This document shows, piece by piece, positions 8,223 to 49,174 of a stretch of DNA of 64,000 bases (the first letter of the stretch is position 1; each line of letters starts with the position of its first letter). Below the pieces are notes generated by a model that ran no database searches, had not been told where the DNA came from, and was given only the letters and a program-made list of their open reading frames with translations. The position numbers and the translations under genes are program-made. Source of the stretch: a virus; IMG/VR virus record IMGVR_UViG_3300013093_003863, positions 1 through 64,000 of that record. One strand, 5' to 3'.

Positions 8223-8426
8223 TTATGATTTCAATCCATTATTAAATTTTGCACATCTTCCCTCAACAATGGTTATTGAAGGATCTTGTCGAAACTTTTC
8301 TTCGGCCTTGGCCACATCTGATTGACATTCGGCTCGATTTGCGTAGGGAGTCTCGACCGACATTGCACCACATTGTGTTCCTTGACAAAAGAACACAATG
8401 GCCAGATACATGATGTTAATATCCAT
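8223..8426 (-). CDS. Small membrane-anchored or secreted protein (67 aa)
   Basis: The ATG at 8426 shares a base with the queD stop (TAATG). Residues 1-20 (MDINIMYLAIVFFCQGTQCG) form one hydrophobic segment suitable as a signal anchor; the rest is a hydrophilic domain with four Cys in all, possibly forming disulfides outside the membrane. Function unknown. Confidence 0.55.
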   Translation of the reverse strand: MDINIMYLAIVFFCQGTQCGAMSVETPYANRAECQSDVAKAEEKFRQDPSITIVEGRCAKFNNGLKS

Positions 8427-16778: not shown

Positions 16779-16962
16779 CGGGTTCCCCTCGTGCTATTTG
16801 TTCTTTTATTTTAACAATATCTTCTTTGACATGCAACCTTTGTTTCTTCAGTTTGGTCATGTGTTCATCGGTAAACATACCAGTTTGTTCCATTTTGTCA
16901 ATTTTTTTATCCAAAGTGGCATGTTCTTTTTCTAGATGTTTGAGTCGTCCGGGTAAGGTCAT
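16759..16962 (-). CDS. DUF465/YdcH-like small coiled-coil protein
   Basis: 67 residues, mostly heptad-like: LKHLEKEHATLDKKIDKMEQ, then LKKQRLHVKEDIVKIKEQI, which is the two-helix pattern of the DUF465 (YdcH) family. Function of the family is not established. SD GAGGAACAATG. Sits directly after the DpdA-like gene. Confidence 0.65.
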   Translation of the reverse strand: MTLPGRLKHLEKEHATLDKKIDKMEQTGMFTDEHMTKLKKQRLHVKEDIVKIKEQIARGEPDDQRWL

Positions 16963-18479
16963 TGTTCCTCCAATTCGTCAAGTCGGTTGTTGTCTAATTC
17001 GGGTTCTACATACTCAAACAATTGATTAAACATAGTGGTGCTGTTACGTGCTTTCTTGCCAGTGTAGCCACGTCCACCAACGATCTCCATCCAATAGTCA
17101 TCGTATTTTTTAATTATTGCTTCGCTGGCTGCTCGGGTAGGAGCCGCAAATATACTTTCCACAACATCTTCAAATTTGGCATAGTCGCCTTCGCTGCGTT
17201 GCATCATGCCGGGTCGTTCGCCTGCATCAAAACGTCTATTGGCTTCTTGTACCGCAGTCAAATGCATCCAAACATTGTGGCTCATCAGTAACATATAACT
17301 AAAACTGTCCCACGAACTACGTCCTTCTTTGCCGTTTTTGTTCAAGTCACCGGGCTTATATATACAGATGTCTCGCATAGTTAGCAAATCGCTCACCGGA
17401 CTGGCTTGCCAAGTTGGATAGTAGCCATCGGCAACTACAGCTTGTCCGTATGGACGTGTGTCGGTGCTGTATTTTTTATCATCAGGACCGGCCGCCATCT
17501 TGTAACTCCATTTGCCTTGGTCGGGAAATGCGTTTTCGTAATAGACCTGTCCGTTTGCAGTTGCCAGGAAAGGACTTGCACAATCAAACGATATAGTAAA
17601 ATTGGGGTTGGCATACCGGCGAACATTGCGTTGGATAACTGTGAGCAATACTGCCCATTCCAGTTTACTAGTGCCCAAAAAGTGCATCCAATCATGAACA
17701 CCTTCTTGTAACAAACCATCGTACTTTAACGCAATCAATCGATCCAGTATTAGATGTACATCGCACATGTTTTGTCCGCCCATGCCCCAACCATTAAAAT
17801 GCGTATCGGGATACTGTGCTGGATCACAATAGTGTTTCATGGTTTCGTACCAATCGTCGGCTTCTTTGTGACTAGCACCTTGTAGCACATTCAAGAATCT
17901 AGCACCACCGTTACGAATGCCTTTGCGATTGTTTATGAAGTATTCGTTATTGAATCGAGTGGCATCTACTGCTTCTTGGTGCTTGGTAATTTTACATTTG
18001 CTTTTGGCAAATTCGTCACGCACAACCCAAGTGGGAATATCCAGGCCCATGCCGTACGTGGCACTGCCATCCAGCCATTTAAGCACACTATCACGCATCT
18101 TTTGTGCTCGAGGACATCCCGAGTTGGCTTTCCAATCGCCTTCCCACAAGCCCTTGGCAATTTGGAATCCGCCCGAGTCGCCAACCAGTGTAGTGCCCTT
18201 TTCACGTTTACGCATCATGTTTTCGGCCGGCACTTCCTTGGTCAAATCCAAGTTGGCATGTCCGCCTGAATGTAGACTCCACTTGTACGGAAACAGTGCC
18301 TGCTGACTGTTGAGCCAATTCAGTTGCTCCATGCTGGTCAATCCAGCGGGAAAACGTTTGGGGTCTACATAGTCATTGTTGACCTGTTGCTTGCCCACAA
18401 ACGTAGCATAAAAGCCACTGATAGCGGGCAAAAAGACTGCATAGTCGTTTTGTTTTTGTGTTAAGTTATCTTGTGCCAT
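16959..18479 (-). CDS. dpdA: DpdA-like DNA 7-deazaguanine transglycosylase
   Basis: 506 residues of the tRNA-guanine transglycosylase superfamily. DpdA proteins exchange guanine in DNA for a 7-deazaguanine. Visible are D101-SGGFQIAKG (base-recognition Asp), FLNVLQGASHKEA, FNGWGMGGQN, VHDWMHFLGTSK and SFDCASPF with the candidate nucleophile D299. There is no clear C-x-C-x2-C zinc site as in bacterial Tgt, which fits phage DpdA types better. FolE, QueD and QueE are encoded nearby, so the substrate is probably made by the phage. Confidence 0.8.
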   Translation of the reverse strand: MAQDNLTQKQNDYAVFLPAISGFYATFVGKQQVNNDYVDPKRFPAGLTSMEQLNWLNSQQALFPYKWSLHSGGHANLDLTKEVPAENMMRKREKGTTLVGDSGGFQIAKGLWEGDWKANSGCPRAQKMRDSVLKWLDGSATYGMGLDIPTWVVRDEFAKSKCKITKHQEAVDATRFNNEYFINNRKGIRNGGARFLNVLQGASHKEADDWYETMKHYCDPAQYPDTHFNGWGMGGQNMCDVHLILDRLIALKYDGLLQEGVHDWMHFLGTSKLEWAVLLTVIQRNVRRYANPNFTISFDCASPFLATANGQVYYENAFPDQGKWSYKMAAGPDDKKYSTDTRPYGQAVVADGYYPTWQASPVSDLLTMRDICIYKPGDLNKNGKEGRSSWDSFSYMLLMSHNVWMHLTAVQEANRRFDAGERPGMMQRSEGDYAKFEDVVESIFAAPTRAASEAIIKKYDDYWMEIVGGRGYTGKKARNSTTMFNQLFEYVEPELDNNRLDELEEQ

Positions 18480-26600: not shown

Positions 26601-29600
26601 TTATGCACCACGCCACTGTGCATACAATCCAGTTACGTACATCATATCGTATTCACCATAATAGAGTTTGTTTAATTCGGTTTTTACTGCTGGAGTCAAT
26701 GATCCGGTACCGGGCACCACGTCAAAAGCAAAAATCATATTGCCATCTTCGTCGTCTCCAAGATAGTCACCGCCCAATCGTCCCATTACAATATCAATAT
26801 TTTTATCAACTATCGCGTTTCTTCTTTTTGCCCTTGCAAGATCATCGGCATTTTTTTGTTTGTGTAACTTTTTATATTTAAGATCACTATTTTCCAATTC
26901 TACGTAGCCGCGAACTTCAACCCCGGGAATTTGTGCTAGACTCATCCAATTACGTTTACCGCCGGGTGTTTGTTGTGATCCAGCAAGCAAGGTTATTTTT
27001 AATATGCTTAGTGCAACACCATACAGGGCTTTGGCAATGCCCTGTCCTCGATAATCTTCATCCACTGTGACGGTACTCACTTGGTATGCATTATTGATAG
27101 GAAAACCTACCCGCATCAATTTCAATTGTCCGACGGCTTCTTGCCCTGATTGATCTAATATTCTTATTTCTAAAAAACGCCCAGTGTCAATGGTGGCATA
27201 ATTTAATCCACTGCCACCCGGTAACGGTTTTATATTCTTTTGGCTTACTGCCCTGGGATCGGTATACCTAGGATGTTTTAACACATCTTTACCACCTGTA
27301 TATTGATATGATTGTAAATTTTCAATTTCGGTTATCTCGTCTTCGCTTATGGCACCGATACCTATACCAATACCGGCACTAGCCAATGTATATTTTACAG
27401 TGTCGATCCAGTTTTTGCCGTTGACTCGACTCACCACAGTAGGTATAACAGTATTCAATACTGCCTGTAACAACATGTTGGTCTGTGCTGGAGAAAGTTG
27501 TACATTTTGCGCTATATGCAACAAGCCACCAGTTAATAGTGTACCAATGGTTGTTATTACACCACCTTGTATATAAGGATTTGTTTTGGCTTTGACTAGA
27601 ATTTCTTTAACTTGTCCACGAACTGAAGGATCGGCTTTGGCTAATAATGCTTGTGCTTGTTCAACGTAATTGTCAACAGGTTGTCGAGCGACTTCGCCAA
27701 CCTCATCTTGGTAAAAATCTATTACAGCATCAGTAACTTGATTAGCAACTTCGGATTCAAATAAACTTTCATCTACGGCACGTGCATACTCTGTAGCATG
27801 TCCACTGCGGTCTACATGCCAAGCATAAAATCTAATATCAGGATATTCTTGGTGTAACTTTAAAAATGATTCCAAATTGGGCTTTGAATCATCGTACATA
27901 ATTGCTTTGTTATAAGGATATCCTGTTAACAATCTACGTATAATACGTGCTTTCTTTTCATCAATTGGCACAGGATCTTGATCATTTCCTGCACGGTACA
28001 CATGTACCTTGTTCATATCTATGTGCCATTGTTCAAATGTTTTTAAGAATATTTCTTTATTGTTAAAGTCACTTCTAGCAGTAACCATTACAACTTTATT
28101 ACCGGTTGCAATATCATTTTTCAATTGCTCAATCATGGGTGCAATTGGTTGTGCATGTTTGAAAAAGTCTTCGGCATCTCTAAATGCACCAAAGTCAAAT
28201 TCTTCGCCGGGTTGCTTTTTGTACAATGTAAACTCGTGACTGTCTAGGGTCTTGACAGTTTTACCATTGCGAACTACACCAACTCGAGTATTAGTAGTTA
28301 CTAGCGTATCGTCAATGTCAAATATAACTAATTTCTTTTCGCCAACAGCTTCGTCAACGCCTTCTTTGGCATGTTTCTTTTTGCCAGCTTTCATATTAGC
28401 CAACCAGTGTGCCATACGAGCTTTCTCTCCCGTACTATGTTTGGCCGTTTTACGTAGGCTACTTACACTTGCTTTAGTATTAACACCACTGCGTTTAGCC
28501 AATCCTTTGCGTCCAGGATGCTTACCATCGGCAAAGTTTTCGCTCATGATCCAAGTGTCGGGAATTTGTTTATACTTTTCTACCCAGAGATCATGCATTT
28601 TTTGTCCGCTTATACCATGACTCTTGGCTACACGTGTCATGATCTTGTCTATGATATCGTATACTTTGTCGTCATTGTCGTCGACTGCTTGTATCTGTTT
28701 TTTATGTGCTTCCAATGCGGCACGTAATTCTTCTACGGCATCTTTATCTTTGTCATGATCCATGTTTTCGTCTACTTTGTTTTGACTTTGAACATAGTCA
28801 ATAGCGGATTGTACTATGACTTGATCTATCCCGAGACAGTTTTTGCGATCGCTATAGCCCTGTTTATCCATTGCGTGGAGATAGGGATATATTCCTTGGA
28901 TTTTTGGGAATAGTCCCATTTGCCAGGCCAGCTCAAAACTTATTTCTCCCCTTGGACTATACCATTCGGGATCATGACGCCATTTAATTCCAAAATTGGG
29001 TTTGACACCGTTGGGCCCTTTCACTGGTGGACCGTTATAAAATACTCCGGCACTGTTAAATTCAAGACGTGTATTATTGAAGGTCATCATGTATTCGCCA
29101 TCACCTTTAGACCACATGCGATAATTCATTTTATTTAACAGTGCCACAACTGCGGGATCTTGTGAGGGATCTTGTGCGGGTGCTTCTTTAAGAGGTGGAG
29201 CCGGTCTAAATTCAAACATGTCGGCTTCAACGTCCGAATACTTGCTGACAAGTTTTGCTATAACAGGATCCATTGCCTTGTAGGGAATGTTGTGTGCTAT
29301 TTGAATTGGTTTAGCGTTGGGTCGGCGTAGATTTAGATAAAGATTGATTCTGTCAGGATGTATGATTTTACCTTCGTCGACATCATTTTCCCAGACATTT
29401 TGTTCGGGACGATGTTTAGCCCAAAAGCCGGCGCCAGCATCAGTTTGTTGCCCACTGCGGCGGATTTTATAGCCTTTGCTTTTCACATAGTCATACATGG
29501 TTTGAGCAATGCCTTGCCCACGATAGCGTTCTTCAACTTCTAGGTCTTGTGGTAGTAATTCGTCACCATCAAAAGCAAATAACACATGACCCAACTCACG

Positions 29601-30101
29601 ACCGTTGCTTGTAGCCGTAACATACATTACTTGATTATCGTAATCGTCATCATCAACGTATTCATCGTCTTTTTGTATTTCAATAGAAATATCTATACCG
29701 TTAAATGCTTCTTCAGTTATGCCACTTTTTTTTAAACCAAAGTATTCGGGATTGGCCTCGGCAAAGTCACGCATGACAACACCGGCATTGGCATTGGCTT
29801 CGTTTTCTTGTGGAGTACCAGTTTCGCCTGCAGCTGCAGTCAACTCTCCGGCTAAGTTTTGTTTATGATGTGTTAGTTCGTGTGCAAGAGTGCGTAGCAC
29901 ATCTATGGGATTGCGATTGGCAATGACAACATTTAGTGTTTTTGTTTCTGGGTTATACTGCCCAAAAGTTGTATCAACAGGAGCATCTAGCAATGTGATT
30001 TCAGGAAGTTCTTTAATTCCCAATTGCTCAGCGATCCAAGGAATGTACTTTTGTACAAATGCCCGGTTGTCGCTTTCTTTAGAATACTCTTTTGCTCGCA
30101 T
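26601..30101 (-). CDS. Giant multidomain polyprotein: zincin, GNAT, HAD phosphatase, second GNAT; capsid-targeted
   Basis: 1166 residues. It starts MRAKEYSKES, like the T4 capsid-targeting peptide. Domains in order: zincin with HELTHH at 74-79; GNAT around 140-230 (ERYRGQGIAQ); unknown domain 260-450; a basic region near 500-580; HAD phosphatase 590-750 (VIFDIDDTL, VMVTARSD, IMYDDSKPN), like polynucleotide 3'-phosphatase types; a hydrophobic Gly-rich helix near 845; and a second GNAT around 980-1070 (DEDYRGQGIAKALY). Between domains are ITEEA, VDEG, LKEA, VDEA and VDES, candidate prohead-protease sites. Likely packaged, cut and injected; no domain's target is known. Confidence 0.75.
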   Translation of the reverse strand: MRAKEYSKESDNRAFVQKYIPWIAEQLGIKELPEITLLDAPVDTTFGQYNPETKTLNVVIANRNPIDVLRTLAHELTHHKQNLAGELTAAAGETGTPQENEANANAGVVMRDFAEANPEYFGLKKSGITEEAFNGIDISIEIQKDDEYVDDDDYDNQVMYVTATSNGRELGHVLFAFDGDELLPQDLEVEERYRGQGIAQTMYDYVKSKGYKIRRSGQQTDAGAGFWAKHRPEQNVWENDVDEGKIIHPDRINLYLNLRRPNAKPIQIAHNIPYKAMDPVIAKLVSKYSDVEADMFEFRPAPPLKEAPAQDPSQDPAVVALLNKMNYRMWSKGDGEYMMTFNNTRLEFNSAGVFYNGPPVKGPNGVKPNFGIKWRHDPEWYSPRGEISFELAWQMGLFPKIQGIYPYLHAMDKQGYSDRKNCLGIDQVIVQSAIDYVQSQNKVDENMDHDKDKDAVEELRAALEAHKKQIQAVDDNDDKVYDIIDKIMTRVAKSHGISGQKMHDLWVEKYKQIPDTWIMSENFADGKHPGRKGLAKRSGVNTKASVSSLRKTAKHSTGEKARMAHWLANMKAGKKKHAKEGVDEAVGEKKLVIFDIDDTLVTTNTRVGVVRNGKTVKTLDSHEFTLYKKQPGEEFDFGAFRDAEDFFKHAQPIAPMIEQLKNDIATGNKVVMVTARSDFNNKEIFLKTFEQWHIDMNKVHVYRAGNDQDPVPIDEKKARIIRRLLTGYPYNKAIMYDDSKPNLESFLKLHQEYPDIRFYAWHVDRSGHATEYARAVDESLFESEVANQVTDAVIDFYQDEVGEVARQPVDNYVEQAQALLAKADPSVRGQVKEILVKAKTNPYIQGGVITTIGTLLTGGLLHIAQNVQLSPAQTNMLLQAVLNTVIPTVVSRVNGKNWIDTVKYTLASAGIGIGIGAISEDEITEIENLQSYQYTGGKDVLKHPRYTDPRAVSQKNIKPLPGGSGLNYATIDTGRFLEIRILDQSGQEAVGQLKLMRVGFPINNAYQVSTVTVDEDYRGQGIAKALYGVALSILKITLLAGSQQTPGGKRNWMSLAQIPGVEVRGYVELENSDLKYKKLHKQKNADDLARAKRRNAIVDKNIDIVMGRLGGDYLGDDEDGNMIFAFDVVPGTGSLTPAVKTELNKLYYGEYDMMYVTGLYAQWRGA

Positions 30102-30107
30102 AATGAG

Positions 30108-30115
30108 TATTTAGT
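30108..30115 (-). promoter_or_regulatory. Late-type box (ACTAAATA) 6 nt before ATG
   Basis: Minus-strand ACTAAATA includes the TAA stop of the upstream gene and is followed by CTCATT and the ATG at 30101. No Shine-Dalgarno is present. Geometry predicts a leaderless late transcript. Confidence 0.5.
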
Positions 30116-31307
30116 GGAACATCAAGAAGCTATTCATAACATCACGTCGATTAGCTGCTCTGTCGCCGTGTCCGCTGGCAAATACTACCACATTCCATTT
30201 ACGTACTGGTCCTACTGGAATTTTCAACATTTCATCGTAGCTGATAATAGTATTGGGACGTATAGGTTGACTACTTTCCGCACCAAACGTTTTAATTAAA
30301 CGTTGTTTAAATTCTTCCCAAGCTTCGGGTGATTTAAATTGTGTACGCCCTTCGGCATCCTTGATGGCCTTGCCTTTGGGATTGGTTACAATCAAGTCTC
30401 TAAACATATCTTTAGGCACTTCAAATGCTTGTTTAACTGTACCGCCACCGGCAATGTGTTGCTTGATTGGTTTGACTTCGCGACTTTTAGCTCCGCCACT
30501 GTGCTGAATTTCAAAGTTGTCGGGCAAGTTGGCCAATGCTGCCATGGCCATCTTGGTATAAGCATAAAAATCCACATCCGGATAGTCACGTGCTACTTGT
30601 AATGCCATGTCTAAATATTCTTTACTGAAGAAGTCACCAGCATCATGCCAACGTACTACAAGTTTCATTCCTTTAGCAGCAAGTCCGCTTTTGATTTTAT
30701 CAATGTTGGCTCGTAACATAGCAAACCACTCTTCGGGATGATTAATCAAAAAGTTAAGACTACGAGCAGCACTCATGCTACTGGCCGGGAACATTACATA
30801 GCCGCCTTTTCGTGCATAACAAAACAGTTGACAAGCACCGGCTCCGGGACAGGTTACAATTTCCACAAAGTCACCGGTCGCTTCGTCCATGATAATTCCG
30901 GCCAGCGCAGGTAGTGTTAGGTCCAATACTACCTCGCCCTCAGTGGCACTTTTTAACATTTTGGCGTTGGGACTGTCCAGTATGCTTTTGGGTCTAGCCA
31001 TTATTTGTCTAGCCAAGTCATCTAAATCCCATTCATTGACCGGATTGCCTTCATCATCCACTTGATCATCTTTGGTAATGGCCTTGATATTACTGCCATG
31101 TATTATACCAGCAAAACGATCTTGTTTGGTTTGAGTGTCGGTCTTGATTCGTTCAGCGCGACTTTGCATTGTGCCACGATCAAGTCTACGATGCGGAGCA
31201 TTTAGTCCAATGGCTTCATCAACTTCGCCGCCGATGTGTAGGGGCTTGACTGTGAATCCACCTAGTTTGGTGCCCTTGGATTCGATTAAAAATTCACTTG
31301 CTCTCAT
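30111..31307 (-). CDS. GP88-family protein with capsid-targeting-like N-terminus
   Basis: 398 residues from the ATG at 31307 (ATGA overlap with dps). The N-terminus MRASEFLIES matches M-[RK]-x-x-E-F-x-x-E. VTCPGAGACQLFCYARKGGY followed by Ser/Ala/Asn-rich helices is the signature of the phage gene-product-88 family, whose activity is not established; its clustered Cys suggest metal binding. A GGEVDEAIG segment near residue 30 is a candidate cleavage site. Likely an internal virion protein. Confidence 0.7.
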   Translation of the reverse strand: MRASEFLIESKGTKLGGFTVKPLHIGGEVDEAIGLNAPHRRLDRGTMQSRAERIKTDTQTKQDRFAGIIHGSNIKAITKDDQVDDEGNPVNEWDLDDLARQIMARPKSILDSPNAKMLKSATEGEVVLDLTLPALAGIIMDEATGDFVEIVTCPGAGACQLFCYARKGGYVMFPASSMSAARSLNFLINHPEEWFAMLRANIDKIKSGLAAKGMKLVVRWHDAGDFFSKEYLDMALQVARDYPDVDFYAYTKMAMAALANLPDNFEIQHSGGAKSREVKPIKQHIAGGGTVKQAFEVPKDMFRDLIVTNPKGKAIKDAEGRTQFKSPEAWEEFKQRLIKTFGAESSQPIRPNTIISYDEMLKIPVGPVRKWNVVVFASGHGDRAANRRDVMNSFLMFH

Positions 31308-31741
31308 TTTGCTGTTGCTCGTAGCATCCATGCATGTTTACGGAACGCATCAATACGTTCGGCCAAAAAGTTACTGAATCCATGTTCGCCAGCCGATTCG
31401 GCCAAGTCATAGACAACTTTGATTATGCCTATCATGTGTTCGGCATCTTCTAGTAATACGAGCACCATTTCTTCTGGTGGAAGAATTTGTGTTTCGTCTG
31501 CAATTTCGGTTAATGCACTGAAGCGTGTGTAACTGGCTGGAACATATCCACCACTTTTGCGAATGTTTTCGGCAAAATCGTCAATGCTACCGTAAACTTC
31601 CTCGTATATTTTTTGAAATAGTTTGTGGTATTGATAAAATGCAGCACCTTCTACGTTCCAGTGAAAGTTGTGACTTTTTAAATAAAAACTAAAACTGCTG
31701 GCAAAAGCAATTTTAGAGGAGTTAATTAATTCTTCGTTCAT
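31304..31741 (-). CDS. dps: Dps-like miniferritin
   Basis: 145 residues. KSHNFHWNVEGAAFYQYHKL and VYGSIDDFAENIRKSGGYVP carry the ferroxidase-site ligands of Dps (H...H-x-D, D-x-x-AE). Dps proteins form 12-mers that store iron, detoxify peroxide and can coat DNA. It lies between polyprotein genes but lacks their N-terminal peptide. ACTAAATA is 6 nt before the ATG and no Shine-Dalgarno is seen. Confidence 0.85.
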   Translation of the reverse strand: MNEELINSSKIAFASSFSFYLKSHNFHWNVEGAAFYQYHKLFQKIYEEVYGSIDDFAENIRKSGGYVPASYTRFSALTEIADETQILPPEEMVLVLLEDAEHMIGIIKVVYDLAESAGEHGFSNFLAERIDAFRKHAWMLRATAK

Positions 31742-31747
31742 AATGTA

Positions 31748-31755
31748 TATTTAGT
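31748..31755 (-). promoter_or_regulatory. Late-type box (ACTAAATA) 6 nt before dps
   Basis: The same octamer and spacing as at 30108-30115, again overlapping the TAA stop of the upstream gene, followed by TACATT and ATG. Confidence 0.5.
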
Positions 31756-34195
31756 CAAAGTATCCGGCACGTCGCATTTCGGCCAAACGCACTGCCATTA
31801 AACGTTGTTGGCGACGTTCAGCAATGCCCATGGGCTTTTGATATTGGCTGGTCATTGGAGTAGGCCCGGACAATTTAGAAACATTTACACGTTGATTGCC
31901 GGGCGGAACTGGACTTGATGAATCATCGGGACCGGCTCCCACTGCAGGATCTGCAGCATTGTACTCGTTCAATTCAATTCCGTAGTGTTTGCATACTTTT
32001 AACAATTCGTCGTATGTGAGTAATTCTAAATGACTTACATCCACTTTGTGCTTTAACTGGTCAATCAAGGACTGTCTACTGGGACCATCTTCGTCAAGAC
32101 CGGGTGTTCCGGGAATAGCACTTGTACTATCGTTTGGAACCATATGGCCATCCGCATATTCCATTACTTGCCCTTGGCCATGCCAAGCATCACCTTCACC
32201 GTGCCATGAATCTTCGTCGACGTCGTTTTCGTTCATGCCCATGGCATTGTCGATTCTGGTTTCGGCTTTGGTTTTATAGTAGTATTTGGGTCCGCCTTCT
32301 TTGGGATCAACAGCTCGCCACATGAACAATTCTTTGCCGTCTACGTTCATCAACTTGGCAGCACCCGGCACTGACATTTCTCTTGGGGCATGATGAAACG
32401 AATAGCCTTTATAGTCAATGTCTTGGTTGCCCATCATGCCAGCAACACCGGCTGCACCCAATGTAAATGCACCCAGTGCGTTTGCAAATTTGCCTTCTTC
32501 TACACCTTCAACTGTTGGTGGTTTGCCAGTAATGTACATTTTCCACTCTTTTCCAGTTTGTGCAGTTTTACGAGCACACATCTCTCGCATCTTTTGTTTT
32601 TGTTCAAACCATGCTTTACTGTTTTCGGGACCGGCACCGGGAAAAATCTTCCAAGTACGCCCATTGATCTGTATTTCAATGTTGGCAGTGCCCATTGGCT
32701 CGTCCTGACCTTTTTTGTGGCCTAATACTTGTTTACCAAATTTGGCAGTGTGTGGTTCAAATTCTGCTTCAGCTACACCTTGCTCTTTAATTTTTAAATT
32801 TTTAAATTGATTCATGCTACTGCCAAACATATTGTCAATTGCAGCTCTTGTTCTTTCTTGGTCTTGCCGTTTTTGCTCGCGTCTATCTGCGGTGGCTTGT
32901 TTTTTGGTGCCCGTTTTAATAGTCGTCATCATGTGGTCAAAAGGCTTATCGCCTGTGGTCTCAGCCACATCTCGCTCGTATCCGGTTTCTTCAGCTGCAC
33001 CGCCAGCGTCGTGTGCCAATTGTTGTATAGCCGCCCAATACTTACGTGGAGCCGTCATGTCATCGCCATGCCAGCTGATCGCTTTGCCGAATTTGGCCAT
33101 TACTTGATTGTAGGCCTTTTCACTGTCAACGCCAAATGTTACGGTATCATATGATCCTTCCGCCACATCCTGTTGTTTAAGAACAAACACACGTGCAGGA
33201 CTAATAGGTGATTGACCTGCTCGTTGTGATTTTACTAAGACTTGCCAACTTCCAGTCATCATTTCTGGTTCACTAACTACTACACCTCGGTCCCAATACT
33301 GTTTATCATCTCTTGGAGGATTTGGTAGCATGTCTTTTGGGCCTAACCATAACATTACATGAGTTCCTGGTTGTAGTCTTGATTGTGACCCTTCCGCTAC
33401 GCCCTGTTGTTCTCTAACTGCAGGATTGTCAATCTGTTGTGCCACTGCAGTCAAGCCTTCGTTGCCGTTGGTGATCTTTTTGTACATCCATGCTTCTAGT
33501 GGTACGCCCTGTTTAACAGATCGGTAAATCTTTTTTGCAGCCTCGGCTATGGCCCGTAGTTCGCCCAGTGCCATACCGTCCAGTTGTTCATCTTCCATGG
33601 CATAGGCTTCTGTGCCTCCGGTCATCATGGCTTCTTCTACACTCTCACCTAAATCACTGCCTTGAAATTCTATGTGGTCATATGGACTCCAGGGTTGGCC
33701 TGTACGACTGTCTACCTCTTCACCGTTCTCGCCATCATCAGCATATTCATAGTAATCATGACTGGCCATGTCTACACCATCAAAATCTGCGTTGTAGTCA
33801 ATGTAGTATTTTCTTACCTTGCCATCAGGACAATGTACGCCACGACTCAATATTTTTTCCACTGCCACTTGTGCATCAATAACCTTCTTCATTGGGCTAC
33901 CACCTTTTCGGGCTATGTCTGCCAATAGGCTCAGATCCTGTGTGTACCAAGCCTGTGCCAAAGCATGTAGATAACCCATACCATTGTCACCACCGCCGTA
34001 TTCGGGACTGGGTGCAAATTCTTTTAAAGGTTTATTTTTAACACAGTTATTGACCTTGACCTCTTTGCCATAAGTGGGACTGGCCTTTGATCCTTCTTTG
34101 TGCCAACCGGTGCGGCAGTGTTCACGATTGCGTTGTGCTTGAGTGCGTTTGGCTTCTGCAATGCTCATGGCATCTACAATATCATTTAAAAACAT
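31751..34195 (-). CDS. Polyprotein with repeated GVAEG linkers and IAEA targeting site
   Basis: 814 residues. The N-terminus MFLNDIVDAMSIAEAKRTQ ends in I-A-E14|A15, as in the T4 IPIII peptide. Candidate cleavage linkers: VEEA, QGVAEG (E268), QDVAEG (E346), DVAET, QGVAEA (E476), GVEEG, VDED. The pieces between are short (about 60-130 residues): a small beta domain after E268 with a P-x-x-x-L-WLG pattern, a basic helix before E476, and a C-terminal SAP-like helix pair (SHLELLTYDELLKVCKHYGI). No enzyme motif is recognised. Confidence 0.7.
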   Translation of the reverse strand: MFLNDIVDAMSIAEAKRTQAQRNREHCRTGWHKEGSKASPTYGKEVKVNNCVKNKPLKEFAPSPEYGGGDNGMGYLHALAQAWYTQDLSLLADIARKGGSPMKKVIDAQVAVEKILSRGVHCPDGKVRKYYIDYNADFDGVDMASHDYYEYADDGENGEEVDSRTGQPWSPYDHIEFQGSDLGESVEEAMMTGGTEAYAMEDEQLDGMALGELRAIAEAAKKIYRSVKQGVPLEAWMYKKITNGNEGLTAVAQQIDNPAVREQQGVAEGSQSRLQPGTHVMLWLGPKDMLPNPPRDDKQYWDRGVVVSEPEMMTGSWQVLVKSQRAGQSPISPARVFVLKQQDVAEGSYDTVTFGVDSEKAYNQVMAKFGKAISWHGDDMTAPRKYWAAIQQLAHDAGGAAEETGYERDVAETTGDKPFDHMMTTIKTGTKKQATADRREQKRQDQERTRAAIDNMFGSSMNQFKNLKIKEQGVAEAEFEPHTAKFGKQVLGHKKGQDEPMGTANIEIQINGRTWKIFPGAGPENSKAWFEQKQKMREMCARKTAQTGKEWKMYITGKPPTVEGVEEGKFANALGAFTLGAAGVAGMMGNQDIDYKGYSFHHAPREMSVPGAAKLMNVDGKELFMWRAVDPKEGGPKYYYKTKAETRIDNAMGMNENDVDEDSWHGEGDAWHGQGQVMEYADGHMVPNDSTSAIPGTPGLDEDGPSRQSLIDQLKHKVDVSHLELLTYDELLKVCKHYGIELNEYNAADPAVGAGPDDSSSPVPPGNQRVNVSKLSGPTPMTSQYQKPMGIAERRQQRLMAVRLAEMRRAGYFD
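32764..32787 (-). repeat. Linker repeat KEQGVAEAE
   Basis: Minus-strand coding repeat AAAGAGCAAGGTGTAGCTGA and following bases, one copy of the recurring [QE]-Q-[GD]-[VM]-A-E-[GA] linker. Candidate cleavage after E476 of the 814-residue polyprotein. Confidence 0.6.
33154..33177 (-). repeat. Linker repeat QQDVAEGS
   Basis: Second copy: CAACAGGATGTGGCGGAAGG. It shares the CAACAGG...GCGGAAGG core with the copy at 33388, suggesting DNA-level duplication of the linker rather than only protein-level convergence. Confidence 0.6.
33388..33412 (-). repeat. Linker repeat EQQGVAEGS
   Basis: Third copy: CAACAGGGCGTAGCGGAAGG. Candidate cleavage after E268 in the same polyprotein. Confidence 0.6.
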
Positions 34196-35106
34196 TATTT
34201 GACTCCTGCGGCAGCATTTTGTTTTTGTGTTGCCTGTTTAACTGCTGTAGCAATTTGTTGTGATGCTTGTGGATCTAGTAGTGCCGGCCCAAGTTCATCA
34301 GTTACAGTGGCAGCAAACTTTTTAGCTTGTGGGCTCATGCCTTTTCCTGTTGCAGGATCAGCATTGGGAGTGTTTAAAAATTCAGCTCCACCGTTTGCCG
34401 CAGTAGGAACACCACCTACGGGCTTTTTACCAGTGGCTTGAGAAATTTTTTGTAAACCGGTTGTTATTGTTTGTTTTTGCTTTGCTGCCACCTGTGGATT
34501 TTGTTGTTGTCCACCTTGGGCTGGATTACTGGCTCCTGCTTCTTGAACGTAGGCCTTCCACTCGCGTGCAATAGCCTCTTCTATGCTTTCTTCGCAACCA
34601 CCAACACCTTGTCCGGGACGAGGTGGGTTCTTGTCGGTGCCCTTCCAGTAACCACCAAATTTGGCACCACGTGGATTATGTTCAGCCGCCGCCATACTGT
34701 CTTCGTTCTTGGGACGGATGTGATGTTTTTTCATGTTGATGGCCTTGGCAGCCTGTATCTGTGCCGGACTAGCAGCTTCTGCTTGTGTCTGGGCCTGTTG
34801 ATTTTGTGCAACTTGTTGGCTGGGTGGAGTTGTTGCCGGTGGTTTGAATGCAGTTGAGCCTATTTCTTTTTGCACTGTGTATGTTTTACCATCACTAGCC
34901 TTCATTTGCGTAAATGGTTGCAGAGCAAGTTGTTTGGCTACGTCTTGAGGATTGAACCCGTATTTTTTTGCAGCCGTATCCACATCCAAGTAATCCAACT
35001 GCTTGCCAGTTTGTGGATCGGATATGGCCACTGCCTTCATGCCCTGCGGAGCCATTTCATCTAACCGTTTGAATGTGTTTATGATATTGCTAAAATGCTG
35101 ATCCAT
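34195..35106 (-). CDS. Ala/Gln-rich internal-virion-type protein
   Basis: 303 residues. The start MDQHFSNIINTFKRLDEM ends in L-D-E17|M, a weak form of the targeting peptide. SIEEAIAREWKAYVQEAG has two more [IV]-x-E|A sites. The rest is low-complexity Gln/Ala/Pro/Lys, like scaffolding or DNA-binding internal proteins. Overlaps neighbours by TAATG. Confidence 0.6.
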   Translation of the reverse strand: MDQHFSNIINTFKRLDEMAPQGMKAVAISDPQTGKQLDYLDVDTAAKKYGFNPQDVAKQLALQPFTQMKASDGKTYTVQKEIGSTAFKPPATTPPSQQVAQNQQAQTQAEAASPAQIQAAKAINMKKHHIRPKNEDSMAAAEHNPRGAKFGGYWKGTDKNPPRPGQGVGGCEESIEEAIAREWKAYVQEAGASNPAQGGQQQNPQVAAKQKQTITTGLQKISQATGKKPVGGVPTAANGGAEFLNTPNADPATGKGMSPQAKKFAATVTDELGPALLDPQASQQIATAVKQATQKQNAAAGVK

Positions 35107-36350
35107 TATTTTTTGGCCTTTGGTGGTTTGATATCGTGCTTGACGTTGCTTTGTCTATTGGAATAGCCTTGCAATCGTTTTTGCACTTGTGCCTTGGTCA
35201 TGCCACCAGCACCCAATTCAGTAACAACGGTAGCAACTGAACTGCTTACAGTGGCACCAGAATCTTCACTTAGTCGATTTAATTCTTGTTTGAGTTGTTG
35301 TCTTAACGACTTTGTTTCGTTAACACTCTCGCCTGCATGTTTAAAATATTGTACTTGACGTTCACGTTTTTCTGCACCGGCTCTAGTGGGATACTTGCCC
35401 AAATTCTTGTCGCCATGTTTGCTCTTTAACTCGTAACCGCCTTTGACTTTAACAATGTGCTCCTCCACACCTTTCTTTAAAAAGTTAGGTATCTCTCCTG
35501 GTGCTTTACTTTTGTTCACGGGCTTTTGTGGTATATTATATTTAGGACCATCAAGTCGAGTGGCAAGTGGACCAAAGTGTTTACTGGCTTTGGGATCGAC
35601 TTCTATACGTTTGCGATTGGGATAACTCAGTGATGTCTTTTCGTCGGCCCAACGTTGGCCTTCCGCCATACCTTGTGGTTGTTGTGCTGACTGATATAAT
35701 TCGGGGTACGCTTTTCTAATATCAATAATAGCATCTTTTACAGTTTTGTTAGTTCTGTCGCCAACTTCTTGGCCTAGTACCTGTCTATTTTGTTTTACAT
35801 ACGTTAAAATATTTCTAACAGTATCAGCATCACGGCCCACTAACTCAAGTGCGTGTGCTCCGTCTCCGTGTGGATATAGTGCTTTTGACCAATTATGCCA
35901 GTCTGATTCTACAGGATTGTAGCCCTCTTCTATGCCTTCCCAATCACTTGGATCGTGTTCGCCATAATAGTAGTGCTCCATGGCCTCTTGACGGCTCCAG
36001 TGATATTTTTGCATTAGATGTTGTATTTTTCTTTCTGCTTCGTCTTCGTCATCAAGCATTTCATTAACAGTTTGTTCAGCATTGCCAATATTGAACGCAG
36101 GCAATCCGTCTTCGTGTTCTTTGTCCATTTCGTGTTGGCTCAATGCATAGTCCATGACAGTGACCATCATTTCTTTAATAGCTCCGAGTTTTTCCTCGAC
36201 CCATTCAGGTAAATGTTCGTTGTCGCTTAACGCACCTTCTAAGTGACTGGCTACACGTACAATGGTGTGCAAGGTGTTTTTGGCCATAGTTGCATCAGTG
36301 CCATCACTGGGTGCATCGGTAAATTCTTGTAAAAATTCTGTGGGTTTCAT
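35106..36350 (-). CDS. Capsid-targeted-type protein with GMAEG and GVEE linkers
   Basis: 414 residues starting MKPTEFLQEF, fitting M-[RK]-x-x-E-F-x-x-E. Internal sites: GIEEG, QGMAEG (E230), GVEEH, SVNET. The piece after GVEE (VKVKGGYELKSKHGDKNLGK, then AEKRERQVQYFKH) is a compact basic module. No enzymatic motif is recognised. An SD (AGGAATCACG) and a GCTAAATA box at 36373-36380, 22 nt upstream, give it a normal leader. Confidence 0.65.
   Translation of the reverse strand: MKPTEFLQEFTDAPSDGTDATMAKNTLHTIVRVASHLEGALSDNEHLPEWVEEKLGAIKEMMVTVMDYALSQHEMDKEHEDGLPAFNIGNAEQTVNEMLDDEDEAERKIQHLMQKYHWSRQEAMEHYYYGEHDPSDWEGIEEGYNPVESDWHNWSKALYPHGDGAHALELVGRDADTVRNILTYVKQNRQVLGQEVGDRTNKTVKDAIIDIRKAYPELYQSAQQPQGMAEGQRWADEKTSLSYPNRKRIEVDPKASKHFGPLATRLDGPKYNIPQKPVNKSKAPGEIPNFLKKGVEEHIVKVKGGYELKSKHGDKNLGKYPTRAGAEKRERQVQYFKHAGESVNETKSLRQQLKQELNRLSEDSGATVSSSVATVVTELGAGGMTKAQVQKRLQGYSNRQSNVKHDIKPPKAKK
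35657..35683 (-). repeat. Linker repeat QPQGMAEGQ
   Basis: A fourth copy of the linker, in a different gene: CAACCACAAGGTATGGCGGA and following bases. Sharing between genes argues for cassette-like spread of the linker. Confidence 0.6.
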
Positions 36351-36372
36351 CGTGATTCCTGAATATATTGTA

Positions 36373-36380
36373 TATTTAGC
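36373..36380 (-). promoter_or_regulatory. Late-type box (GCTAAATA) with leader
   Basis: Minus-strand octamer 22 nt before the ATG at 36350 with AGGAA in between; the usual spacing for a leadered late gene. Confidence 0.45.
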
Positions 36381-36381
36381 G

Positions 36382-36660
36382 TTAAGTAGAAAACGTTAAA
36401 TCTTGTGAATCTACAGTTTTGCTATCAACAGTTAAATTGCGAGGTCTAAATACAGTTTCAGCTCCGCAACTTTCTATACGAACTTGGTGTGTGCCGGATT
36501 CGATATCGACTTCTAAGTTTTCTTGTATGAATATTTCGTATGCGGGCCAGATCCAACTGCGTTCGGTCAATAAGTCATTGTCCACATACACACGATATGC
36601 CGGAGTACCGTGTTGTGTTGTATCACAGTAAACATCGAGCGTGATCACTGTGCGGGCCAT
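36382..36660 (-). CDS. Small beta-sandwich protein (CBM-like)
   Basis: 92 residues, with alternating strands: VITLDVYCDTTQHGTPAYRV, YVDNDLLTERSWIWPAYEIF, VDIESGTHQVRIESCG. The 'ligand-strand + dehydrated YVDN/IDD + H-x-[VL]-x-I' layout is shared with the proteins at 6150-6695 and 37932-38378. SD AGGAGCC. Confidence 0.55.
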   Translation of the reverse strand: MARTVITLDVYCDTTQHGTPAYRVYVDNDLLTERSWIWPAYEIFIQENLEVDIESGTHQVRIESCGAETVFRPRNLTVDSKTVDSQDLTFST

Positions 36661-36661
36661 G

Positions 36662-37903
36662 TTACATGGCTCCTAACTTTCTACCCACAATTATTTCCAG
36701 TTTCTTTTGTTCAAGTTCTTTTAGTTTTGGAGCATACGCACGTTCAGCTTCGGGATCGCCTTTGACCATGTTTTGAATACTGTTGATACGCATGTCGATC
36801 ATGTCTAATAGATTTTGTTTGGCTCGAGCAAGGCCACTATCAAAACTATCATTTTCTTTCAAGCCCCGACCCACGGTATTTTTAACTGGTGTTTGGCCAG
36901 TTTTGGGTGCTTTAACTCCGGTCAAATGAAGTGCCTTCATTTCGTCGCCCAATGTCTTGCCAGTTACTGCATTTTGATCGCCAGCAGTGCTCATTACATA
37001 GCGTGGATCATTCCCGCCTTTGACCACACCAACCCCGCCCATTTCACTGACTAGAGAATTGGCTCGCTTGGCACTCTTTTTAACCTCCATACCACCTGCA
37101 GGTTCAGCCGGTGCCGGTAACCGTGTAGCGGTCTTTGCTGGTGGTGTCCCGGCAACAGGTTCGGCTCCCGAATCCGGGGTTATTTTATTGAATATGTGTA
37201 CCAGCTCGGGAGTGGCACGTCCATATAATGCCTTTAAGAAAGCATCACGTTGCTTGGGGTCGTTTCTAACTTGGTTGTAGACTGCACGGCATTCGGTGCC
37301 ATGACTGATATCCACTATTTCACCATTTACAGTAAACGGCACTTTCTTTTCGGGAACAACCAGCACATAAGCATGTCCTTCACCTACAGTAACAGTGTCA
37401 GTTAGATTCTTTGGTAATGTTTTAAACGGCTTTTCGTCGCCCACTGCTTTTCCCGGGGGAATAGTGGCTCGACGTCCTGTGGGCGTAAACTCTTGATAAA
37501 AGCTATCAACTTCCAAACGTTCTTTGTCGGGAGCACCAACGGCAAAAATTAAAACTGTAGAGTTTGTATCGATTCCAGCAGCCGCTACCACTGAATCTAT
37601 CCCGTAAGGATCATTGACCAATAGTATTTGATGATCGTTGACTCCAGCTGCCTTCATGAGCTGGATTTTTTCATTGGCGTTAAACGGATTCTTGGGAAGT
37701 GATTTCTTGTCGTATTTTTGTCCCGATGCTATTTTGTCTTGAACTGTATTGGGACTAGTGGTAATACGCACATTGTCAGCACCAAATTTGGCCTGCAACA
37801 GTTTTAGTACAGCAAGATGCCCTTGATGAAAGGGCTGAAAGCGTCCGGGATAAGCTACCAGTACACGACGCTCTTGTGCTTCAAATAATTCAGTGACAAA
37901 CAT
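36662..37903 (-). CDS. HxGH nucleotidyltransferase (NMNAT/cytidylyltransferase-like) with capsid-targeting-like N-terminus
   Basis: 413 residues. MFVTELFEAQ at the start resembles a short targeting peptide (ELFE|A). The nucleotidyltransferase core follows: VAYPGRFQPFHQGHLAVLKL holds HxGH, then ITTSPNTV, and later STVLIFAVGAPDKERLE near residue 130. This superfamily makes NAD, CoA or CDP-alcohols. From about residue 270 a linker-like region (SLVSEMGGVGVVKGG) leads to a helical C-terminus. If injected, it could rebuild NAD early in infection, but this is speculation. Confidence 0.72.
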   Translation of the reverse strand: MFVTELFEAQERRVLVAYPGRFQPFHQGHLAVLKLLQAKFGADNVRITTSPNTVQDKIASGQKYDKKSLPKNPFNANEKIQLMKAAGVNDHQILLVNDPYGIDSVVAAAGIDTNSTVLIFAVGAPDKERLEVDSFYQEFTPTGRRATIPPGKAVGDEKPFKTLPKNLTDTVTVGEGHAYVLVVPEKKVPFTVNGEIVDISHGTECRAVYNQVRNDPKQRDAFLKALYGRATPELVHIFNKITPDSGAEPVAGTPPAKTATRLPAPAEPAGGMEVKKSAKRANSLVSEMGGVGVVKGGNDPRYVMSTAGDQNAVTGKTLGDEMKALHLTGVKAPKTGQTPVKNTVGRGLKENDSFDSGLARAKQNLLDMIDMRINSIQNMVKGDPEAERAYAPKLKELEQKKLEIIVGRKLGAM

Positions 37904-47989: not shown

Positions 47990-49174
47990 CTAGAACTTGT
48001 AATGGTTGTTGATTCCGGTGTCGTGATAGTCGGCAGATCCTAGACAGTAAAACGGGCTTAAAAATCCCACAAATCCCACGGGTCGTCCCAGCTCGTTATT
48101 GAAATACTTGGGATCTATGGTTTTGACCAAGAGATTTTGTCCGGCCTCTTGAATACGAAAAGCAGCGGTATTTTGAAAGTTGTGATAAAACCAATAGTCC
48201 ATTTCGTTGTAAAAACTGTTGGTGGGTTTACTGGTTTGAAACGTAGCCGGATCGTAGTCGGGATAGATCAAGGGTTTGACCACTTGTTCATAGGCACTGC
48301 GATGTGCAATGCTGTAATTGGGCCAACGCACTAGATACTGTAGATGTTTGTTGGCCGGCAAGCTGAACCAGGTGCGTATTATGTGTGCTTGTTTTTGCAC
48401 TATTTCGGGAAAATCTGGAGTCCAATAAAAATATTCGTTCGTGATATTGTTGTAATCGTAAACAGTATTACTATGATTGGCCTGCAAATCCATAAAATAC
48501 ACATACCATTTGCCGTCCTTGATGCACATCTTGGGCTTGTCAATTCCGTACAACACACAGATTTTTTTGCCGGTATCGGCAAATTCACGATGTTCTTTCA
48601 TGGCCACAGCATCGTGCTTGCACACATGAGCCAATTGAAAATAGTCTTTGCCTCGAAAAACCCAAGTTTCATCAGTGGCACTGTCCAAGATAAATTCACT
48701 GTAGTCGTGTATGGTAATTCGCACTCGAGGAAAATGTGTTTGGACCCAATTCAGTAACGGTCTAGCAGCAAAATCGTATTCGCTAAGAGTATTTTGGGGT
48801 TTGGTATTGAACGGATCACTGCTGACTCCTTTTTCGCCCTGTTTGGGATAGCGAAAAACTATTTCATCTATGTGTATGCCGTTGCGTAAAAAACTGTAAA
48901 TAGCAGTAGTACTGTCGCCACCGCCGGACGCTTCAACTCGAATCCAATCATAACGTTCGCGTAATTGTTGTGCACGTTGTCTATACAATTCACGCAAGTC
49001 TGTTTCGGGTTCTTGTTCCCATGCCATGGCATCAAATATTGGTCTATTAAAATTCCATTCGGGAAAACGATTGGTCTTGGTGGCAGTAATCAGTGCCTGC
49101 ACTTTGTTGTATATTTTTTCATCACCAAGTTGGTAGTACCCCAACTTGGTATTTTGTTCAATGCCTTTAATCAA
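47990..49174 (-). CDS. PP-loop ATPase-like protein
   Basis: 394 residues from a TTG; a later start near residue 50 is possible. RVEASGGGDSTTAIYSFL is the SGGxDS PP-loop that binds ATP and adenylates substrates in QueC, TilS, asparagine synthetase and PAPS reductase relatives. Downstream IDEIVFRYPKQGEKG follows the usual second strand. No C-x2-C zinc site of QueC is seen. Its place between a Bug receptor and structural genes gives no clear substrate. Confidence 0.65.
   Translation of the reverse strand: MIKGIEQNTKLGYYQLGDEKIYNKVQALITATKTNRFPEWNFNRPIFDAMAWEQEPETDLRELYRQRAQQLRERYDWIRVEASGGGDSTTAIYSFLRNGIHIDEIVFRYPKQGEKGVSSDPFNTKPQNTLSEYDFAARPLLNWVQTHFPRVRITIHDYSEFILDSATDETWVFRGKDYFQLAHVCKHDAVAMKEHREFADTGKKICVLYGIDKPKMCIKDGKWYVYFMDLQANHSNTVYDYNNITNEYFYWTPDFPEIVQKQAHIIRTWFSLPANKHLQYLVRWPNYSIAHRSAYEQVVKPLIYPDYDPATFQTSKPTNSFYNEMDYWFYHNFQNTAAFRIQEAGQNLLVKTIDPKYFNNELGRPVGFVGFLSPFYCLGSADYHDTGINNHYKF

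What the first reader, a model, noticed from the sequence alone, without database searches (positions are those of the whole stretch)
26601..37903. A cluster of capsid-targeted, self-cleaving cargo polyproteins
Three genes (26601-30101, 30111-31307, 35106-36350) begin M-[RK]-x-x-E-[FY]-x-x-E: MRAKEYSKES, MRASEFLIES, MKPTEFLQEF. Three more have looser versions: MFLNDIVDAMSIAEA, MFVTELFEAQ and an LDE17 site. T4 internal proteins carry a targeting peptide of this kind (MKTYQEFIAE|A), removed by prohead protease gp21. Inside these genes the same kind of site recurs between domains (ITEEA, VDEG, VDEA, GVAEG, GVEEG). The cargo includes a zincin, two GNATs, a HAD phosphatase, a GP88 domain and a nucleotidyltransferase. 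The arrangement suggests packaged polyproteins cut in the capsid into many small effectors that enter the cell with the DNA.
Basis: partly seen in the sequence, partly recalled or inferred. Interest (0 to 1): 0.9.

Follow-up and report, generated by a model that had tools for sequence, protein, structure and literature searches.

The report
Modular capsid-cargo polyproteins of jumbo phages
This stretch of a giant T4-like virus of bacteria appears to be a cargo locus whose proteins start with a peptide like the one that loads T4's injected proteins into the virus head, and whose longer members are strings of interchangeable modules joined at what look like cutting sites of the head-maturation protease, although packaging and cutting have not been shown by experiment.

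Summary
In detail: three genes begin M-[RK]-x-x-E-[FY]-x-x-E, and gp21-like sites (aliphatic-x-Glu) recur between domains. The window is most likely a fragment of a jumbo T4-like phage: its DNA polymerase is 71-82% identical to that of five 210-374 kb records that carry gp21-type protease and T4-type capsid genes. Beside the polymerase, eight of nine relatives read have GVAE-site ORFs and six have M[RK]xx[ED]F starts. That start begins 97 of 2494 ORFs but follows 7 of 17482 internal Mets. Strongest evidence: one module occurs in 17 contexts, mostly unrelated upstream; the residue before it is Glu 17/17 and P3 is L/I/V/M/F 14/17, whether it follows an N-terminal peptide or an internal linker. 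In two cultured cyanophages, some enzymes of virion proteomes begin with T4-like peptides. Linkers (QGVAEG) are also conserved as DNA, suggesting module shuffling at these seams. Packaging, cleavage and injection remain inferred; 'self-cleaving' is not supported. Closest kinds: T4 internal proteins and polyvalent proteins. New variant of a known kind.

The parts
26601..30101 (-). 1166-aa cargo polyprotein: N-terminus MRAKEYSKE|S, zincin-like segment, GNAT, unknown modules, basic 'ENFADGK' module, HAD, helical module, GNAT
   Evidence: modules without a family hit read by eye
29841..29984 (-). zincin-like segment (HELTHH), residues 40-87
   Evidence: Pfam DUF6647/DUF6782 below cut-off; motif read from the sequence
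29709..29720 (-). predicted cleavage site ITE130|EAFNG; in L055 the same module follows N-terminal MRASEFIIE|DAFKG
29415..29621 (-). GNAT module 1 (residues 161-229)
   Evidence: Pfam Acetyltransf_7
29370..29381 (-). predicted cleavage site VDE243|G; about 68 residues (238-305) around and after it are missing in L052
28764..28775 (-). predicted cleavage site VDE445|N; L052 carries a large extra stretch after this point
28347..28358 (-). predicted cleavage site GVDE584|A, just before the HAD module
27744..28343 (-). HAD phosphatase / polynucleotide-kinase-like module (residues 587-786)
   Evidence: PHROG 415, E 5e-12
26910..27146 (-). GNAT module 2 (about residues 986-1064)
30111..31307 (-). 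GP88-domain cargo protein, N-terminus MRASEFLIE|S
   Evidence: Pfam GP88 2.5e-32
31278..31289 (-). predicted targeting-peptide cleavage site LIE9|S
31304..31741 (-). ferritin/Dps-like gene in the cargo locus, no T4-like N-terminus
   Evidence: Pfam Ferritin 1.4e-21; by eye similar genes in seven of nine relatives
31751..34195 (-). 814-aa cargo polyprotein, N-terminus MFLNDIVDAMSIAE14|A, five further sites
34151..34162 (-). predicted site SIAE14|A
33629..33640 (-). predicted site SVEE188|A
33389..33400 (-). predicted site QGVAE268|G
33155..33166 (-). predicted site QDVAE346|G
32765..32776 (-). predicted site QGVAE476|A
32492..32503 (-). predicted site EGVEE567|G
34195..35106 (-). 303-aa protein, N-terminus MDQHFSNIINTFKRLDE17|M; a '..ILxxLDxLxE' class seen by eye in relatives
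34573..34584 (-). predicted site SIEE177|A
35106..36350 (-). 414-aa cargo polyprotein, N-terminus MKPTEFLQE9|F
36321..36332 (-). predicted targeting-peptide cleavage site LQE9|F
35922..35933 (-). predicted site GIEE142|G
35658..35669 (-). predicted site QGMAE230|G
35457..35468 (-). predicted site GVEE297|H before the HIVKVKGGY module
35322..35459 (-). HIVKVKGGY module (about residues 298-343), preceded by Glu in 17 of 17 contexts
36662..37903 (-). nucleotidyltransferase cargo; N-terminus MFVTE|LFEAQ resembles T4 Alt MELITELFDE
   Evidence: Pfam CTP_transf_like 2.6e-7

Best explanation
The locus encodes internal head cargo of a jumbo T4-like phage. Each protein has an N-terminal capsid-targeting peptide (IPIII-like M[RK]xxEFIxE or Alt-like MxxxELFE) that binds the prohead core. 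The phage's gp21-type serine protease then cuts after aliphatic-x-Glu: once to remove the peptide, and in the long proteins again at internal linkers (GVAE|G, GVEE|G, VDE|G, ITE|E), freeing the modules inside the head before DNA is packed. The modules (acetyltransferases, HAD phosphatase, nucleotidyltransferase, GP88, small basic domains) enter the host with the DNA. Modules are gained, lost and swapped between phages at the linkers, whose DNA (CAAGGTGTGGCGGAAGG) is itself conserved in many relatives and so can serve as a crossover seam. Shown here: the N-terminal pattern, sites at module borders, interchangeability of N-terminal and internal sites, protease and capsid genes in relatives, mosaicism, DNA conservation. 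Inferred: packaging, cleavage, the identity of the protease, injection, recombination at the seams.
For: T4 controls read from the record: IPII/IPIII MKTYQEFIAE|A, Alt MELITELFDE; gp21 rule L/I-x-E (PMC9026906). M[RK]xx[ED]F begins 97/2494 ORFs against 7/17482 internal Mets; 121 ORFs with it in the first 30 residues fall into 20 body families. It begins 35/787 ORFs in relatives against 0/264 in 33 control loci, p 3e-5. HIVKVKGGY module: P1 Glu 17/17, P3 LIVMF 14/17 (background 22%, p 2.5e-7), P2, P4, P5 hydrophobic in 2, 4 and 0 of 17; two contexts are MKADEFITE and MKANEFIIE. GNAT module: ITE, ITE, LEE and, in L055 as a separate gene, MRASEFIIE stand directly before [ED]AF[NK]GIDI, 4 of 4 contexts. 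RB43 gp57B: DITE|HIEQ. S77 protease and T4 capsid gene in the same 11 of 23 large records; the window polymerase matches 10 of these 11; cargo-type genes beside the polymerase in relatives. S-CREM2 virion-listed SAM hydrolase, kinase, cytidylyltransferase and two more proteins begin M[KQ]xxxxF[LF]xE; S-SCSM1 virion NMNAT begins MKSFLQFLKE. Breakpoints within 10 aa of a site 223/527 against 15% at random.
Against: No experiment on these proteins. No S77 match in the window's own fragment. 12 of 23 large records gave no hit for S77 protease or T4 capsid: fragments or another lineage. The loose pattern taken from T4 alone is only weakly tied to virion detection over all 219 S-CREM2 CDS (5 of 10 hits, p 0.06); the 5-of-5 pattern was sharpened after looking, and only 1 of 8 S-SCSM1 virion-marked proteins read fits it. 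Three of nine relatives read have no M[RK]xx[ED]F start in the stretch. The Glu before HIVKV could in part belong to the domain. Linkers carry V or M at P3, relatives' capsid junctions mostly L. 304 of 527 breakpoints are not near a GVAE-type site. No T4 late-promoter box is enriched or stands before the cargo genes.
Confidence: 0.75

Rival explanations
1. Polyvalent-protein model: the multidomain proteins are packaged, but are processed by their own zincin-like metallopeptidase domains, in the head or in the host, not by the prohead protease.
For: The 1166-aa protein starts with a zincin-like segment; polyvalent proteins of phages and plasmids are proposed to be processed this way (PMC5512222).
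Against: HExxH occurs in 3 of 60 multi-site cargo ORFs (7 of 100 cargo ORFs) against 40 of 1023 other ORFs, so it is not enriched; the sites follow the gp21 rule and interchange with ends of N-terminal peptides. A zincin encoded elsewhere and acting in trans is not excluded.
Confidence: 0.12
2. The linkers are DNA-level recombination seams only; the encoded peptide is an uncut flexible spacer.
For: In loci not found by DNA pattern, GCG codes Ala at 21/24 sites (background 7.8%) and GTG codes Val at 19/24 (17.7%); with free third positions 45/54 sites in multi-site ORFs are GGT-GTG-GCG, against 1/35 hits out of frame.
Against: The window's own linkers differ in synonymous codons yet keep the peptide; the Glu and hydrophobic P3 before HIVKV are kept with unrelated DNA; sites coincide with ends of N-terminal peptides.
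Confidence: 0.1
3. The proteins are core or scaffold-associated head proteins that stay in, or leave, the capsid, and are not delivered effectors.
For: T4 core proteins such as gp22 and gp67 are also cut into several fragments (PMC9026906); some modules match PHROG 'virion structural protein' families and cyanophage proteins, some annotated 'structural protein', near terminase genes.
Against: Several window modules are enzymes (GNAT, HAD, GP88, nucleotidyltransferase) and the repertoire is mosaic, unlike conserved scaffold genes.
Confidence: 0.1

Closest known systems
T4 internal proteins IPI, IPII, IPIII and Alt with capsid-targeting sequence and gp21 processing
   Same: Short N-terminal peptide (IPIII MKTYQEFIAE, Alt MELITELFDE) with aliphatic-x-Glu; T4-type head genes and gp21 in relatives
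   Different: T4 cargo proteins are single products trimmed at their ends; here many modules are joined in one chain with repeated internal sites and are shuffled between phages
Polyvalent proteins of phages and conjugative elements (Iyer et al. 2017, PMC5512222)
   Same: Large multidomain proteins combining unrelated enzymes (zincin, GNAT, ParB-like), predicted to be injected with DNA
   Different: Those authors propose in-chain zincins or assemblin-like peptidases for processing and place T4-type Alt ARTs outside genuine polyvalent proteins; here T4-like N-termini and repeated prohead-protease-type linkers are present, and HExxH is rare
Head proteins of giant phages phiKZ and SPN3US cut by gp21-related proteases
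   Same: Many head proteins cut after short motifs ending in Glu by a gp21-related protease (PMC9026906, PMC10052503, passages)
   Different: The cleavages identified for SPN3US remove N-terminal propeptides (besides protease self-cleavage), not linkers between functional modules
Virion-associated enzymes of T4-like cyanophages (S-CREM2, S-SCSM1, S-SM1)
   Same: Cytidylyltransferase/NMNAT, kinase and SAM hydrolase listed in virion proteomes; those of S-CREM2 and S-SCSM1 have T4-like N-termini
   Different: Separate genes, not GVAEG polyproteins; the passages I read of those papers mention no targeting peptide

Membership tests
T4-type capsid-targeted internal proteins | N-terminal about 10-residue targeting peptide ending in L/I-x-E | tested here: met
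   MRASEFLIE and MKPTEFLQE in the window; M[RK]xx[ED]F over-represented at starts in relatives and absent from 264 control ORFs. MRAKEYSKE has Ser at P3, so that gene fits only in part
T4-type capsid-targeted internal proteins | found inside virions | not testable with these tools
   no proteomics for this phage; only analogous enzymes of cultured cyanophages
T4-type capsid-targeted internal proteins | phage encodes a gp21-type (S77) prohead protease | tested here: inconclusive
   no match in the 88.8 kb fragment; present in 11 of 23 large records, 10 of which have a homologous DNA polymerase
gp21-type protease substrates | aliphatic-x-Glu at the cleaved bond | tested here: met
   P1 Glu 17/17, P3 LIVMF 14/17 before one module, 4/4 before the GNAT module; relatives' capsid junction L-x-E|N/S in nine of ten relatives aligned, L-H-E|T in L012
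gp21-type protease substrates | cleavage demonstrated | not testable with these tools
   needs mass spectrometry or an in vitro assay
Polyvalent proteins | two or more disparate enzymatic domains in one chain | tested here: met
   two GNATs and HAD, with a weaker zincin-like match, in 26601-30101
Polyvalent proteins | zincin-like processing domain as common hub | tested here: not met
   HExxH in 3 of 60 multi-site cargo ORFs. The paper gives about 36% of polyvalent proteins with one, so it is frequent but not obligatory
Polyvalent proteins | delivered with DNA | not testable with these tools
   inferred only

The most novel reading that the evidence does not exclude
Jumbo T4-like phages run an exchangeable 'cartridge' system: a fixed cargo locus of polyproteins in which a 17-21 bp linker does two jobs, as DNA the crossover seam by which effector modules are traded among phages, and as peptide (QGVAE|G) the head-protease site that frees each module inside the capsid, so a recombined module is at once addressed, packaged and processed.
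Probability: 0.5. Interest if true: 0.92.

Novelty: new variant of a known kind. Interest (0 to 1): 0.82.

Why it matters
It would extend the T4 internal-protein route to uncultured jumbo phages found in many environmental samples, and explain how phages add early-acting anti-host functions by plugging in modules. The N-termini and linkers give a sequence-only way to list candidate injected effectors in metagenomes, most of unknown function. It also makes a testable prediction about why enzymes such as cytidylyltransferase appear in cyanophage virion proteomes.

Tried and rejected
T4 late-promoter box TATAAATA: 4 in the window against 3.9 expected, none upstream of the cargo genes. AlphaFold2 of the 1166-aa protein on a three-row alignment: mean pLDDT 35, useless for domain borders. 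Window genes against cultured phages: no megablast match, none for the 814-aa protein; only the nucleotidyltransferase core and the small HIVKVKGGY domain matched. No Rfam hit at gathering threshold and no tRNA. A text search for GVAEG/QGVAEG gave one unrelated paper; 'capsid targeting' with 'cyanophage' gave only a T4 review. In-chain zincin processing was rejected as the general mechanism. The pairwise third-position comparison was set aside because most of its loci had been found by that very DNA. One search examined only 81 loci of the free-third-position scan; one search recounts all 120 stretches (which older loci belonged to them was reconstructed from the scan order) and its figures are used. 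The strict N-terminal pattern separated cargo from other ORFs only weakly (8/100 against 32/1023, p 0.02). In one search a wider control set of 60 loci gave 5/495 starts; those five lie in three loci that look like cargo loci themselves, so the narrower set (0/264) is quoted.
Full report
What the window is. The window is bases 1-64000 of an 88,769-base linear virus record. It carries T4-type replication genes; I saw no head genes in it or in the remaining 24.8 kb (ORFs read by eye; S77 search). Its DNA polymerase matches 10 of 11 large records that carry gp21-type protease: 82% (G024, 374 kb), 81% (G006, 354 kb), 78% (G013, G021), 71% (G014), 62-63% (G010, G016, G020), 54-61% in pieces (G019) and 30-35% (G005); G012 had no match. 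The 23 records of 98 kb or more behind loci L003-L180 were all tested: the same 11 have the S77 prohead protease and the T4-type major capsid protein; the other 12 gave no hit for either, nor with a capsid profile built here, which by the tool's own warning proves no absence. The aligned proteases keep invariant His and Ser columns (that these are catalytic is recalled). Relatives' capsid proteins have an L-x-E junction near the N-terminus, e.g. MLAE|NAS. The window virus is therefore most likely a fragment of a jumbo T4-like phage with a gp21-type protease.

The observation. In 54 homology-found loci GVAE[AG] occurs 24 times against 0.57 in shuffles. Across 181 loci, 155 of 2179 non-redundant ORFs have at least one G[VM]AE[AG] and 82 have two or more, up to six; most of those loci were fetched by the linker DNA, so this describes the family, not its frequency.

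A cargo locus beside the polymerase gene. I read this stretch in nine relatives; three stretches are short because the contig ends. Eight of nine hold ORFs with G[VM]AE[AG] sites and six of nine have M[RK]xx[ED]F starts; L287 has only related sites and neither feature, L288 has the start MNSKQFLKEG, and L289 shows sites without such a start. A nucleotidyltransferase gene (recognised by eye) begins MFVTELFEA in the window and MFINELLES, MYITELSEP, MYAHELYEA or MYAYELYEQ in four relatives (T4 Alt: MELITELFDE); in L287 it begins MRLRNLFEN. Other recurrent starts are MKPTEF, MKTTDF, MKSLDF; '..ILxxLDxLxE'; MFLNDIVDA, MFLDDIIGP, MLLNDIVDA; and M-R-A-x-[ED]-F. By eye, a Dps/ferritin-like gene without such a start recurs in seven of nine. 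The interiors differ. Over all loci then held (T4 and cyanophage records left out) M[RK]xx[ED]F begins 97 of 2494 ORFs, against 7 of 17,482 internal methionines; the 121 ORFs that have it within the first 30 residues fall into 20 body families, one of which holds 78 because shared modules chain them together. It begins 35 of 787 ORFs in the window's relatives and 0 of 264 in 33 control loci. With a pattern taken from T4 alone the enrichment in cargo ORFs is modest (16/100 against 76/1023, p 0.005); 'acidic plus two hydrophobic residues' gives 37/100 against 153/1023, p 3e-7.

N-terminal and internal sites are interchangeable. The module beginning HIVKVKGGY lies inside the window's 414-aa protein after GVEE. 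In 17 distinct contexts from 17 loci (those matched by one regular expression; more divergent copies are left out, and at least two contexts, L287 and L042, are related upstream) the residue before it is Glu every time and P3 is I, V, L, M or F in 14, while P2, P4 and P5 are hydrophobic in 2, 4 and 0. In L041 the module directly follows MKADEFITE, and in L039 MKANEFIIE if its internal Met is the start. The window's first GNAT module, [ED]AF[NK]GIDI, follows ITE (window, L015), LEE (L008) and, as a separate gene in L055, MRASEFIIE: four of four contexts. In cultured coliphage RB43 and two relatives a similar domain follows DITE in gp57B homologues; in Klebsiella phage DP01 and Salmonella phage KE12 it starts at the initiator Met, and in Aeromonas phage 1233 a 50-aa ORF has it shortly after the start without Glu, so the Glu is not obligatory to the domain. 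Over all homology starts tested, an aligned aliphatic/Phe-x-Glu lies near 364 of 1594, against 729 of 7970 interior windows.

Shuffling and the DNA seam. A homologue of the 1166-aa protein (L052, 88% identical) lacks about 68 residues around VDEG and has a large extra stretch after the VDEN region. Homology breakpoints lie within 10 residues of a GVAE-type site in 223 of 527 cases against 15% at random. The linker is conserved as DNA: in loci not found by DNA pattern the 24 sites use GGT 23, GTG 19 and GCG 21 times (backgrounds 43%, 18%, 7.8%). With third positions left free, 45 of 54 hits in multi-site ORFs are GGT-GTG-GCG, 26 of 52 in other in-frame ORFs and 1 of 35 out of frame (recount). 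160 of 162 hits of the fixed DNA pattern are in the QGVAEG frame of an ORF. The window's own linkers have drifted in DNA but keep the peptide. I read this as a peptide under selection whose DNA is also spread or kept alike by recombination; that recombination happens at the seam is inference.

Independent virion evidence. PMC10665884 Table 3 (sections 18 and 19 read) lists 52 proteins in purified virions of the T4-like cyanophage S-CREM2. Of these, the SAM hydrolase, APH/ChoK-like kinase, cytidylyltransferase and two hypothetical proteins begin MKDFDSFLEE, MKRFDAFLTE, MKNFSSFLTE, MKDLHSFLTE and MQTFSMFFSE. The loose T4 pattern hits 10 of 219 CDS, 5 of them virion-listed (p 0.06); non-structural virion proteins give 5/28 against 2/107 undetected CDS of 70 aa or more (p 0.004). 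A sharper pattern, written after looking, hits 5, all virion-listed. It then fitted the virion-listed NMNAT of a second phage, S-SCSM1 (MKSFLQFLKEA), but not the other seven virion-marked S-SCSM1 proteins I read. A cytidylyltransferase was also found in S-SM1 virions (PMC3037559, passages; its sequence not read). The authors of the S-CREM2 and S-SCSM1 studies caution that such enzymes may be carry-over from lysates. The virion cytidylyltransferases and the window's nucleotidyltransferase are only distantly alike (blastp E 1e-4).

Relation to known systems. T4 internal proteins supply the targeting and trimming logic (PMC9026906, passages and section 9); IPIII is needed to infect one E. coli strain and IPI inhibits a restriction system (PMC9391042, passages). 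Polyvalent proteins (PMC5512222, abstract, passages and sections 8 and 33) supply the many-domain idea, with processing proposed by in-chain zincins or assemblin-like peptidases; the authors place T4-type Alt ARTs outside genuine polyvalent proteins and find few in cyanobacteria. Passages of PMC7824862 and PMC9503650 discuss injected ART and GNAT domains; I saw no capsid-targeting peptide or repeated linker in those passages. In the listings no title or abstract start described targeting-peptide-led cargo polyproteins with repeated prohead-protease linkers; only openly licensed papers are held, one search listed 15 of 14,789, 10 of 262, 20 of 45 and 10 of 11.

Verdict. I rate it a new variant of a known kind.

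Noticed in passing
linkers in L004-L180, e.g. L008:12483-14600: QGVAEG linkers are conserved as DNA (CAAGGTGTGGCGGAAGG) far beyond what the peptide needs, including the otherwise rare codon GCG.
   Followed up: partly
31304-31741 and the same locus in L282-L288: A ferritin/Dps-like gene sits inside the cargo locus in the window (Pfam) and, by eye, in seven of nine relatives; a packaged DNA-protecting or iron-binding protein would be worth a test.
   Followed up: no
49167-50060, 52214-53194, and record positions 86465-87343 and 76524-77573: Genes that look like tricarboxylate-transporter (TctC) substrate-binding proteins (52214-53194 by Pfam; two by eye) and one TRAP-like binding protein by eye: unusual for a phage.
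   Followed up: no
4944-5843, 8426-8917, 10666-11427, 16959-18479: By eye, QueE-, QueD-, FolE- and TGT-like genes: a possible 7-deazaguanine DNA-modification set.
   Followed up: no
record positions 67432-68522: By eye, an A-type iron-sulfur carrier, a superoxide-dismutase-like protein and an IF-1-like protein in a row.
   Followed up: no
record positions 72665-76072: A run of about ten short proteins with similar C-terminal ends (..FxLRW / ..FxLKW), by eye a tandemly duplicated family.
   Followed up: no
L291, L294, L296 (gp57B homologues of RB43 and relatives) and L293, L295 (Klebsiella DP01, Salmonella KE12): The HIVKVKGGY-type domain also occurs in isolates: at the C-terminus of gp57B homologues and at the N-terminus of a protein annotated as prohead core protein in DP01.
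   Followed up: partly
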